Source: Gracilibacillus sp. YIM 98692 (lineage in GTDB: Bacteria; Bacillota; Bacilli; Bacillales; Amphibacillaceae). From it: a stretch of DNA of 44,614 nucleotides. The translations under genes and the position numbers were made by a program. The notes below the pieces were generated by a model. It was not told where the DNA came from and did no database searches. It worked only from the letters and a program-made list of their open reading frames with translations. The stretch lies in contig NZ_WIXM01000031.1 of NCBI RefSeq assembly GCF_010993965.1, positions 1 to 44,614 of the forward strand, in the 5' to 3' direction. Each line of letters begins with the position of its first letter. Within the stretch, counting starts at the first letter, position 1. Below are positions 22,748 through 25,757 of this stretch, piece after piece.

Positions 22748-23896
22748 ATGAATATTATTGTAGCTGGTGGAGATGGTTTTTGCGGATGGCCAACTGCCTT
22801 ATATTTATCGAAGCAAGGACATAAAGTATCTATTATTGATAGTATGGTAAGAAGAAAGATAGACAACGAACTACACTCTAATTCATTAACTCCAATTGCT
22901 TCTTTACAAGAACGTGTAAATCGCTGGGAAGAACTAACTGGTAACAAAATCACGATTTATGATGGAGATTTAGTTCATTATGACTTTTTAAAAGAAGTAT
23001 TAAAACAAGAACAGCCAGATGCTTTTGTTCATTTTGCTGAACAAAGATCTGCCCCTTATTCCATGATTGATCGAGAACATGCAGTATACACACAACATAA
23101 TAATGTAACAGGTACATTGAATGTACTATTCGGGATAAAAGAAATCGTACCGGATTGTCATTTAATCAAACTGGGTACTTTAGGAGAATATGGTACTCCA
23201 AATATTCCAATTGAAGAAGGATATCTTGAAATTGAACATAAAGGTAGAAAAGATGTACTTCCTTATCCAAAGCAACCTAACTCTTTTTATCACCTATCTA
23301 AAGTACATGATAGTCATAACATTACATTTGCTTGTAAAATTTGGGGAATTAGAGCAACAGACTTACACCAAGGTATTGTTTATGGACTAGATACAGAAGA
23401 AACAAAAATGGATCCTATTTTAACTAATCGCTTAGATTATGATGATGTATTCGGTACAGCACTGAACCGTTTTATTATTCAATCAACCATTGGCCATGAT
23501 CTAACCGTTTATGGTAAAGGAGGACAAACAAGAGGATTCCTTAATATAAAAGACACGGTTCGCTGTATTGAGATTGCCGCTGAAAATCCAGCAGATAAAG
23601 GAGAATTACGAGTTTTTAACCAATTTACCGAAGAGTTTTCAGTTGCTGATCTAGCAGCAAAAGTGAAGAGGGTAGCAGAGGACGAAGGTTTTGAACCGCA
23701 AATTACTAACTTAGAAAATCCAAGAGTAGAATTAGAAGATCATTTCTATCATGCTGAAAATACAAAACTAAAAGAACTAGGTCTAGAACCTCACTTATTA
23801 GATGATGAAGTGATTAGAGAAATTTTAGAAACTGTCGTAAAGCATAAGGATCAAGTTATAGAAACAAACATCCTACCAAAAGTGTCGTGGAAATAA
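22748..23896 (+). CDS. sqdB: UDP-sulfoquinovose synthase
   Basis: An extended short-chain dehydrogenase that makes UDP-sulfoquinovose from UDP-glucose and sulfite, the head-group donor of the sulfolipid SQDG. The NAD motif is [12 protein letters not shown] at residue 7, followed by the family-specific [15 protein letters not shown] and [15 protein letters not shown]. The catalytic residues are T144 ([12 protein letters not shown]), Y181 and K185 ([13 protein letters not shown]). [18 protein letters not shown] and [12 protein letters not shown] complete a pattern matching plant SQD1 and cyanobacterial SqdB over the full 382 residues. GGAGATGGAGG precedes the ATG. An extended -10 (TGGTATCAT, about 22587-22595) is a candidate promoter. 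The next gene encodes the matching glycosyltransferase. Confidence 0.93.
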
Positions 23897-23987
23897 CGGT
23901 TTAATTTGTGATTAATTTGGTCATCATAATACAAAATATGATTAATGCAAGAGACAGTAGAATTTTGTACATAAGGATGGTTAAACC

Positions 23988-25157
23988 GTGAAAATATTAA
24001 TAATTACGGAAACTTTTATACCTTCTACAGATGGTGTGGTCACACGTTTAAAAGAAAGCATTAGATACTTCATGAAACAAGGGCATGATGTCCGAGTTGT
24101 TGCACCAGACTTAGGTGTGGATGAATTTGAAGGTGCTTTAATAAAAGGAGTTCCTGCGAGAAGATTATTCTTTTATCGGTCCAAAAAATTCGCCATGCCA
24201 TCACGTAGAGTGAAGGGTATGATAGAAGAATATCAGCCAGATATCATTCATGTCGTCAATCCTGCTATTTTAGGATTTTCAGGTGTATATTATGCAAAGA
24301 AACTACAGTATCCATTACTAGCATCCTATCATACACAAGTGCCGAAATATGCAGATTACTATCATTTATCCATATTTAAAGGCCTATTATGGTGGTATTT
24401 TCGAAAACTGCATAATCAAGCAGATATCAATCTATGTACTTCGGAAGTTGTACGAAAAGAGTTGGATTCTCAGTCATTTCAAAATGTACATGTTTGGAAG
24501 CGTGGTGTTGATACAACCCTTTTTCATCCTGACAAATATGATGCGAATATGAGAGAAACTTTAACGAATGGTCAGCCTGATAAAAAGCTATTACTATATG
24601 TTGGAAGGCTAGCACCCGAAAAGGAAATAGAAAAAATTAAGGAAGTGCTAGAAATATCTGATCAATTCGTTTTAGCTATCGTAGGGGATGGTCCGCATCG
24701 TTCATCTTTAGAAAAACATTTTGAAGGTATGGACGTTGTCTTTACTGGTTTTATGCATGGCGAAGAATTAGCAAAAGCTTATGCCTCTTCTGATGTCTTT
24801 TTGTTTCCGTCGACAACAGAAACGTTGGGGTTGGTAATTACGGAAGCAATGGCATCGGGATTGCCTATTGTTGCTGCTAAAAGTGGCCCAACTTGTGAGC
24901 AGATTGAAGATGAGAGAACTGGTTTATTATATGATCCATTAAACCCTCAAGATTTTACGAGAACGATTTTACAATTTGAGGATGAAACGCTTCGTAAGAG
25001 GCTCTCTAAAACGGCTCGTTCAGAAATTGCTGATATGGGATGGGACGAACAGTCAAAGCAAATTCTAGCATTTTATCATCAGGTTGCCGGCATTGAGCAA
25101 GAAAATCCTGCTAAAAATCTATCGTCCCCATCTACAGAAAAAAGCTTAAGGCGTTAA
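23988..25157 (+). CDS. sqdX: GT4 glycosyltransferase, SqdX-like sulfoquinovosyltransferase
   Basis: A retaining GT-B glycosyltransferase predicted to move sulfoquinovose from UDP-sulfoquinovose to diacylglycerol at the membrane. The N-terminus ITETFIPSTDGVVTRLKESI, then PDIIHVVNPAILGFSGVYYAK, ASYHTQVPKYADYY and VWKRGVDTTLFHP follow the SqdX pattern. The GT4 donor-binding motif is ETLGLVITEAMASGLPIVA. The start is GTG, 91 bases after sqdB, with AAGGATGG as ribosome site. At 389 residues it has the usual length. Without sqdB next door it could also be read as a glucosyl- or mannosyltransferase; the pairing makes SqdX the best call. Confidence 0.85.
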   Translation: MKILIITETFIPSTDGVVTRLKESIRYFMKQGHDVRVVAPDLGVDEFEGALIKGVPARRLFFYRSKKFAMPSRRVKGMIEEYQPDIIHVVNPAILGFSGVYYAKKLQYPLLASYHTQVPKYADYYHLSIFKGLLWWYFRKLHNQADINLCTSEVVRKELDSQSFQNVHVWKRGVDTTLFHPDKYDANMRETLTNGQPDKKLLLYVGRLAPEKEIEKIKEVLEISDQFVLAIVGDGPHRSSLEKHFEGMDVVFTGFMHGEELAKAYASSDVFLFPSTTETLGLVITEAMASGLPIVAAKSGPTCEQIEDERTGLLYDPLNPQDFTRTILQFEDETLRKRLSKTARSEIADMGWDEQSKQILAFYHQVAGIEQENPAKNLSSPSTEKSLRR

Positions 25158-25169
25158 TGTTTAATTTAA

Positions 25170-25288
25170 GGCTGTGTTCTAAAAACTTGTTACTTTCGGT
25201 AAAAACTTCATTAGTTTGGGAGAGTGGAAAGTGACCGCCTAGATCTAACCTGAACGATGGAAAAACAACAAACTTTATAAAAACAGCA
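25170..25288. mobile_element. 119-bp MITE with 8-bp target-site duplication
   Basis: The element starts GGCTGTGTTCTAAAAACTTG and ends with an inverted relative (...AAACTTTATAAAAACAGCA); about 18 of the first 26 positions agree between ends. It is flanked by a perfect direct repeat TAATTTAA at 25162-25169 and 25289-25296. It has no coding capacity. It sits between sqdX and gtrA and would need an IS transposase in trans. Confidence 0.75.
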
Positions 25289-25307
25289 TAATTTAAAGAG
25301 GGATAGA

Positions 25308-25757
25308 ATGAGTAAACAACGAAGGAAAAGTGGTCCCTTACAATTTTTTCAGTTTGGTCTCATAGGAATTGGAAATGCAGTAGTAGATATTGGTACATTG
25401 AATCTACTGTTGCTGTTATTTCATACAGATGATCGTATGTGGTTATTAGCATATAATACGATAGCTTACACGTTAGCTGTGACTAATAGTTATTTTTGGA
25501 ATGCAAATATCACCTTTAAACGATCAGCAACGGGTACAAATTTTCAAAGGTTCGGTTTTATTACACAAAGTATAATTAGTTTAGGAGTCAGTAATGTTGT
25601 ATTTATTGGCTTAAATAGCATGCTAGAACATTTTGGTGTATTAAATTGGCTTCGTTATAATATTGCAAAAGGTTTAGCGATGTTGTTATCATCTATCGCT
25701 AGCTTTTTTATGGTAAAATATTTTGTTTTTAAAGATTACGGAAAAAGTCGAAAATAG
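25308..25757 (+). CDS. GtrA family membrane protein
   Basis: A 149-residue protein with four predicted helices, typical of GtrA (PF04138): FGLIGIGNAVVDIGTLNLLLLL at the start, then NTIAYTLAVTNSYFWNANITFKR and, near the end, SSIASFFMVKYFVFKD. GtrA proteins are linked to moving lipid-linked sugars across the membrane or to cell-wall glycosylation. It lies 150 bases after sqdX; that gap holds the MITE, so the original operon may have been tighter. A role in moving a sulfoquinovosyl or other lipid-linked sugar is inference from position only. Confidence 0.88.
   Translation: MSKQRRKSGPLQFFQFGLIGIGNAVVDIGTLNLLLLLFHTDDRMWLLAYNTIAYTLAVTNSYFWNANITFKRSATGTNFQRFGFITQSIISLGVSNVVFIGLNSMLEHFGVLNWLRYNIAKGLAMLLSSIASFFMVKYFVFKDYGKSRK

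What the first reader, a model, noticed from the sequence alone, without database searches (positions are those of the whole stretch)
22748..25757. Sulfolipid (SQDG) biosynthesis locus sqdB-sqdX-gtrA in a Gram-positive spore former
sqdB has every catalytic and signature residue of UDP-sulfoquinovose synthase, including T144, Y181 and K185, and is followed by a glycosyltransferase with the SqdX pattern. SQDG is best known from photosynthetic membranes and some alphaproteobacteria. A compact locus in a non-photosynthetic Bacillaceae suggests an anionic sulfolipid that could replace phospholipid under phosphate limitation or help membranes in salt. The adjacent gtrA could add a translocation step not known from plants or cyanobacteria.
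Basis: partly seen in the sequence, partly recalled or inferred. Interest (0 to 1): 0.7.

Follow-up and report, generated by a model that had tools for sequence, protein, structure and literature searches.

The report
Sulfolipid genes with likely lipid flippase
A salt-loving bacterium carries the two plant-type genes that make a sulphur-containing membrane lipid, and a third gene beside them, found almost only in sulfolipid makers, probably moves that lipid across the membrane.

Summary
Window 22748-25757 (genus Gracilibacillus) encodes an SQD1/SqdB-type UDP-sulfoquinovose synthase (62% identical to Arabidopsis SQD1; T144, Y181, K185 present), an orthologue of cyanobacterial SqdX, and a four-helix GtrA-family protein. 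The pair sqdB-sqdX in Bacillus is known: B. coahuilensis has both, with membrane sulfolipid reported as data not shown (PMC4744853, passages). I found the pair widely in Bacillota.

The new part is gtrA. In 159 family genomes, sqdB and sqdX occur in the same 74; gtrA orthologues occur in 72, 71 of them inside that set, and 38 of those 71 are unlinked to sqdX. In 398 class genomes, 39 of 40 strong gtrA hits lie in strong-sqdB genomes (55). The trio occurs in four gene orders. In one genus, 8 of 8 gtrA genes lie beside the pst phosphate-uptake operon. The clade has its own residues, among them Ser in place of an Asn that GtcA, a candidate sugar-lipid flippase, needs. Best reading: a dedicated sulfolipid translocator that many, not all, sqdBX genomes carry. 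Transport and the lipid itself are inferred; with only well-supported tree branches the co-occurrence is not significant (4 contrasts).

The parts
22748..23896 (+). sqdB: UDP-sulfoquinovose synthase, plant SQD1-like branch, 382 aa
23988..25157 (+). sqdX: GT4 glycosyltransferase, orthologue of cyanobacterial SqdX (sulfoquinovosyl-diacylglycerol synthase), 389 aa, GTG start
25308..25757 (+). gtrA: four-helix GtrA/DPMS-TM family protein of the sulfolipid-associated clade; proposed sulfolipid translocator
22625..22643 (-). best-conserved block upstream of sqdB in the window and nine other Gracilibacillus upstreams; in the window its minus strand reads TTTACA-N5-TTTATA, like two PhoP-type hexamers (consensus recalled); function unproven

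Best explanation
The locus makes and places the anionic sulfolipid SQDG. [quoted passage not shown] SqdX transfers sulfoquinovose to diacylglycerol on the cytoplasmic leaflet (inferred from orthology to cyanobacterial SqdX). GtrA is a dedicated third component (supported here by co-occurrence and gene order) and most likely moves SQDG, or less likely another sulfoquinovosyl lipid, to the outer leaflet (inferred from its family). It is probably not needed for SQDG synthesis itself, since many sqdBX genomes, the three cyanobacteria tested among them, lack it. Confidence by step: SQDG genes 0.9, GtrA serves this pathway 0.75, it translocates SQDG 0.45.
For: SQD1 match and active site; SQD1 scores like the window protein on NF041015. 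In 59 phylum genomes around a cyanobacterium, the same 20 have a SqdX match (43-48% identity) and an SqdB match, 39 have neither; from the listed places 14 of the 20 have them within 1.5 kb. In 159 family genomes: sqdB 74, sqdX the same 74, gtrA 72 with 71 shared; table 71/3/1/84. 38 of the 71 gtrA are unlinked to sqdX. Class sample of 398: 39/16/1/342. ftsZ tree: 12 independent pairs on the best tree, 11 agree, 0 disagree, 1 no difference. In 69 named loci only sqdB, sqdX and gtrA recur widely (60, 52, 25 loci; next family 8). Gene orders BXG, GBX, XBG, BGX. A distant sqdB type (45-47% identity to the window's) heads sqdX-gtrA in G013 and G014. 8 of 8 gtrA of genus g24 lie beside pst genes (labels checked on L259, L268, L271). 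Clade residues, distinct rows: S132 in 44 of 45 (N in 13 of 15 other GtrA), N50 44 of 45 (Q 12 of 15), Q87 43 of 45 (0 of 15).
Against: No lipid or transport data. gtrA orthologues are absent from many sqdBX genomes: G063, G066, G090 in the family; 16 of 55 strong sqdB genomes in the class sample; two Halobacillus, Pontibacillus, Thalassobacillus, Salinicoccus, Paenibacillus sanguinis, Brachybacterium, Helcobacillus, Dermabacter and three cyanobacteria, among others, gave no ortholog-level hit. Two genomes have gtrA without sqdBX (G156, G556). With well-supported ftsZ branches only, 4 independent pairs remain (3.8 agree on average, sign test p 0.125, not significant). In 21 of 36 contexts looked at, gtrA sits in a Fur-family-regulator/UspA-like neighbourhood without evident lipid genes. 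No unrelated gene was run as a co-occurrence control. The GtrA proteins that I read of are proposed undecaprenyl-phosphate-sugar flippases.
Confidence: 0.6

Rival explanations
1. GtrA flips undecaprenyl-phosphate-linked sulfoquinovose, which is then put on a wall polymer, so that UDP-sulfoquinovose feeds two products.
For: GtcA, a family member, is proposed to flip C55-P-sugars for teichoic-acid glycosylation (PMC7389260, passages and section 16 part 1). F70, F84 and K121 are kept in 45 of 45 distinct rows; by spacing F70 and K121 match GtcA F74 and K121.
Against: No undecaprenyl-phosphate transferase or outer-face transferase family recurs near the trio in 69 loci. The position that matches GtcA N132 (needed for both polymers) is Ser in 44 of 45 rows, matched by spacing only. 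The match of GtcA R95 is unsure, since the other GtrA rows have no Arg there either.
Confidence: 0.2
2. GtrA is a membrane partner of SqdX, as the related domain in archaeal dolichyl-phosphate mannose synthase is fused to its enzyme, and helps it reach diacylglycerol; nothing is flipped.
For: Best solved relative is the transmembrane part of dolichyl-phosphate mannose synthase (E 2.8e-5, probability 1.00 but E 0.013).
Against: Many SqdX genomes lack GtrA, and in 38 of 71 genomes gtrA is not near sqdX.
Confidence: 0.2
3. The GtrA association is ancestry or habitat (salt, low phosphate), not a shared pathway.
For: Only 4 contrasts survive on supported ftsZ branches; one-gene tree; no unrelated gene was tested as a co-occurrence control.
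Against: Class-wide pattern, four gene orders, and within-genus co-variation in g1, g24 and g43.
Confidence: 0.15
4. The GT4 protein is a glucosyl-, N-acetylglucosaminyl- or mannosyl-transferase, not SqdX.
For: Its best NCBIfam hit is N-acetylglucosaminyl-phosphatidylglycerol synthase, 177 bits, cut-off 480.
Against: It groups with the cyanobacterial genes that co-occur with sqdB in 20 of 20 genomes, away from the genome's own GT4 paralogue, which also hits that model under its cut-off (164.7 bits).
Confidence: 0.05

Closest known systems
sqd1-sqdX of Bacillus coahuilensis (PMC4744853, passages read; the 2008 genome paper is known to me only through it, not held)
   Same: Same two enzymes in a Bacillus; sulfolipids reported in membranes of three strains (data not shown there); same low-phosphate argument.
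   Different: gtrA is not mentioned in the passages read; its genome was not compared here.
Plant SQD1/SQD2 and cyanobacterial SqdB/SqdX
   Same: Orthologous enzymes, same active site; sqdB and sqdX within 1.5 kb in 14 of 20 cyanobacterial genomes.
   Different: No ortholog-level GtrA in the three cyanobacteria tested.
Alphaproteobacterial sqd loci (S. meliloti pSymB, Marinovum pMaD5)
   Same: SqdB homologue followed by a glycosyltransferase gene.
   Different: SqdB 44-46% identical, other branch; the next gene is annotated as glycosyl transferase or Glycogenin-1, not compared with SqdX.
GtcA/GtrA flippase candidates (PMC7389260, passages and section 16 part 1)
   Same: Same Pfam family, four helices.
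   Different: Distinct clade with its own residues, tied to sqdBX instead of CsbB/YfhO-type partners.

Membership tests
UDP-sulfoquinovose synthase (SQD1/SqdB) | Full-length homology to solved SQD1 | tested here: met
   555.7 bits over residues 3-382; 62.1%
UDP-sulfoquinovose synthase (SQD1/SqdB) | Catalytic Thr, Tyr, Lys | tested here: met
   T144, Y181, K185; that these are catalytic in SQD1 is recalled
UDP-sulfoquinovose synthase (SQD1/SqdB) | Makes UDP-sulfoquinovose | not testable with these tools
   needs enzyme assay
NCBIfam NF041015 (curated equivalog) | Score over the curated cut-off 575 | tested here: not met
   483.1; Arabidopsis SQD1 483.0. The window protein is not filed under this model; the cut-off is not a defining feature of the enzyme
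SqdX (GT4 sulfoquinovosyltransferase) | Groups with cyanobacterial SqdX, apart from other GT4 | tested here: met
   tree of 53 rows; the cyanobacterial rows are called SqdX from co-occurrence and adjacency with sqdB, no record named SqdX was at hand
SqdX (GT4 sulfoquinovosyltransferase) | Uses diacylglycerol and UDP-sulfoquinovose | not testable with these tools
   needs enzyme assay
GtrA/DPMS-TM family (PF04138) | Pfam gathering score; four helices | tested here: met
   60.1 vs 26.1 bits; helices 9-37, 43-69, 78-108, 113-140
GtcA-type undecaprenyl-phosphate-sugar flippase | Residues needed in GtcA for both polymers (R95, N132) | tested here: inconclusive
   matched by spacing, no GtcA row aligned: Ser at the N132 position in 44 of 45 rows; R95 position unsure

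The most novel reading that the evidence does not exclude
The sulfolipid-associated GtrA clade is a dedicated SQDG flippase: a small four-helix protein, evolved from undecaprenyl-phosphate-sugar flippases, that many Gram-positive SQDG makers use to export the lipid to the outer leaflet, in some genera as part of the phosphate-starvation response.
Probability: 0.4. Interest if true: 0.75.

Novelty: new variant of a known kind. Interest (0 to 1): 0.55.

Why it matters
I know of no named protein that moves SQDG between leaflets, and none showed in the listings (open-access PMC library only; titles and abstract starts seen). Here is a specific, testable candidate with a defined clade, signature residues and genetic partners. 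If right, it extends GtrA proteins from undecaprenyl-linked sugars to a bulk membrane glycolipid, and the pst linkage would tie sulfolipid placement to phosphate starvation in Gram-positive bacteria.

Tried and rejected
PhoP boxes: a three-box scan (60 shuffles each) found both pstS controls (p about 0.02); of 16 sqdB upstreams outside the window only L038 and L101 reached p 0.05 or less; window sqdB p 0.03, sqdX 0.08, gtrA 0.8; none of 3 pst-linked gtrA upstreams. A block conserved in 10 of 10 Gracilibacillus upstreams has a full first hexamer in 10 of 10 and 4-6 of 6 in the second; it did not recur in the other genera shown. Phosphate control is unproven.

Terminators and promoters: 1 terminator-like (shuffles 1.5) and 13 promoter-like sites (shuffles 16.4); operon limits not settled.

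Lipid reports from halophilic genera: no listed paper (30 of 219 listed) held the word sulfoquinovosyl; one search found none; the 2008 B. coahuilensis paper is not held.

Rejected: the NF041015 cut-off as evidence against sqdB.

Full report
WHAT IS THERE. Three same-strand genes, 22748-23896, 23988-25157 and 25308-25757. The nearest named relatives are Gracilibacillus (G. dipsosauri 87% for SqdB), so the host is taken as a Gracilibacillus. The window is a whole contig, C25, of a 4.37 Mb assembly.

SQDB. The protein aligns end to end with Arabidopsis SQD1 (555.7 bits; 62.1% identity). In 54 rows (one plant, cyanobacteria, Bacillota, Actinomycetota, other bacteria, alphaproteobacteria and one archaeon), Y181, H182 and K185 never vary; T144 is Thr in 51 (Ser in 3), R100 in 52, Q208 in 53. 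It misses the NF041015 cut-off (483.1 of 575), but so does Arabidopsis SQD1 (483.0), and so did all 20 cyanobacterial matches. In the tree (quick method) the window protein sits in a mainly Bacillota group next to, not inside, the group of SQD1 and nine cyanobacteria.

SQDX. NCBIfam does not name it (best NF053787, 177 of 480 bits). In 59 genomes of the phylum of a cyanobacterium, 20 have a P0002 match at E 1e-40 or better (43-48% identity) and exactly those 20 have an SqdB match; 39 have neither. From the listed places 14 of 20 pairs lie within 1.5 kb. A tree of 53 GT4 rows puts the window protein, other Bacillota, Rubrobacter and these cyanobacterial proteins apart from the genome's own GT4 paralogue (32% identical) and other GT4 (some deep forks under 95 support, some long branches). 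Brachybacterium and Dermabacter fall among Bacilli (support 87-93), which looks like gene transfer.

GTRA. It is PF04138; the model has four helices (mean pLDDT 83.4); the only solved relative by profile is archaeal dolichyl-phosphate mannose synthase, whose transmembrane part matches.

CO-OCCURRENCE. On the same 159 family genomes: sqdB (NF041015, E 1e-60) 74; sqdX (E 1e-80) 74, the same genomes; gtrA (P0003, E 1e-5) 72, of which 71 are in that set. Exceptions: G063, G066, G090 (sqdBX, no gtrA) and G156 (gtrA only). Table 71/3/1/84, Fisher p 2.4e-40, which ignores kinship. 33 of the 71 gtrA lie within 3 kb of sqdX, 38 do not. On an ftsZ tree of 146 of the 159 genomes each trait needs at least 12 changes; the tool's test with supported branches only leaves 4 pairs (3.8 agree on average, median p 0.125, not significant); with all branches of the best tree my own pairing gives 12 pairs, 11 agree, none disagree, 1 does not differ (11 of 11: p 0.001). 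In 398 class genomes 55 have SqdB at 560 bits or more and 40 have GtrA at 53 bits or more; 39 are shared, G556 is the exception, 16 SqdB genomes have no strong GtrA. A profile of 20 linked GtrA (A1), run on 48 chosen genomes, gave two score groups, 145-179 and 58 or less. Eight genomes had the high group: Terrihalobacillus, Sulfoacidibacillus, Rubrobacter (2), Sulfobacillus, a Chloroflexi MAG, and the orphans G156 and G556. None of the high group in Halobacillus (2), Pontibacillus, Thalassobacillus, Salinicoccus, Paenibacillus sanguinis, Brachybacterium, Helcobacillus, Dermabacter, or three cyanobacteria, nor in G063, G066, G090. So gtrA is an accessory: nearly always with sqdBX, but often missing from sqdBX genomes.

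NEIGHBOURHOOD. Among 69 named loci (L036-L104), clustering of ORFs gives sqdB in 60, sqdX in 52, gtrA in 25; the next most widespread family is in 8, in Alicyclobacillus-type loci (the simple ORF caller misses genes in GC-rich loci and some loci are short). Four gene orders occur: B-X-G in most of the 22 trios listed, G-B-X in Desulfosporosinus (L063), X-B-G in L078, B-G-X in L079 and L087. I looked at 36 gtrA contexts: 2 in operons with a distant sqdB type, 9 beside pst genes (8 of 8 in genus g24, at either end of the operon, in two with one ORF between; plus a second copy in G043), 21 in a neighbourhood of a Fur-family regulator and a UspA-like gene, and G156, G556 and two Alicyclobacillus-family genomes elsewhere. 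Pst labels were checked against NCBIfam on L259, L268 and L271 and the regulator is Fur-family; the UspA label is mine and had no NCBIfam hit.

A SECOND SQDB. The same genome has a second, 46% identical sqdB on another contig (L116:855-2099). It groups with S. meliloti, Marinovum and some cyanobacteria. In G013 and G014 a close relative heads sqdX-gtrA (L265, L266), and in 14 of the 74 sqdBX genomes only this lower-scoring type was listed, so it can stand in for the plant-like enzyme in the same module.

HOW GTRA MIGHT WORK. Distinct rows, 45 of the clade against 15 other GtrA (one clade row, L238, was sorted in by my score line but has the other type's residues and scores 54): S132 in 44 (others N in 13), N50 in 44 (others Q in 12), Q87 in 43 (others 0), N118 in 43; F70, F84 and K121 in all 45. 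In Listeria GtcA, R95 and N132 are needed for both teichoic acids, K121 for one, F74 and F91 for the other (PMC7389260, section 16 part 1). Matched by spacing, not by an aligned GtcA row, the N132 position is Ser here; the R95 position is unsure. That suits a new cargo but does not prove one. SqdX works from UDP-sulfoquinovose, thus on the inner face (recalled for such enzymes), so SQDG destined for the outer leaflet needs a way across. I therefore propose SQDG translocation; this step is inference.

PHOSPHATE. gtrA beside pst in g24 is suggestive. The PhoP-box scan picks up both pstS controls but few sqdB and no pst-linked gtrA upstreams. A block upstream of sqdB (22625-22643) is conserved in 10 of 10 Gracilibacillus and resembles two PhoP hexamers on the minus strand, but the other genera shown lack it.

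WHAT IS KNOWN. B. coahuilensis sqd1 and sqdX, with sulfolipids in membranes of three strains as data not shown (PMC4744853, passages). SqdB branches and SQD2/SqdX kinship are discussed in PMC8227023 (passages). Searches for GtrA with sqdB or sulfoquinovose, and SQDG with flippase, listed no paper that links them by title or abstract start; the library holds open-access PMC only.

VERDICT. Known kind of sulfolipid genes, plus a well-supported new partner. Interest 0.55.

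Noticed in passing
L116:855-2099 (own genome, contig C17): Second, 46% identical sqdB, not next to sqdX, near a contig end; the same type heads sqdX-gtrA in G013 and G014.
   Followed up: partly
L116:7689-8645 (own genome, contig C17): Second ftsZ-like copy on the same contig as the second sqdB; another ftsZ on C12 is 72% identical to it, and G010 has a copy 82% like it. C17 may be a plasmid or island.
   Followed up: no
window 31062-34803: Polyphosphate kinase and exopolyphosphatase genes about 5 kb downstream of gtrA, another phosphate-storage function.
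   Followed up: no
window 22412-22439, minus strand: Strong promoter-like site (TTGACA-16-TATCAT) for the divergent heavy-metal P-type ATPase gene 20360-22342.
   Followed up: no
L117:8907-10052: GT4 paralogue beside a peptidase-like gene; relatives of it lie near the unlinked gtrA in other genera (L254, L258, L261, L270).
   Followed up: partly
G015, G045, G082: Two sqdX copies in one genome; in G015 one is with each sqdB type.
   Followed up: no
L262 (G156) and L267 (G556): gtrA orthologues in genomes without a listed sqdBX; the G156 copy has Pro in place of the clade's Q87, as if decaying after loss of sqdBX.
   Followed up: partly
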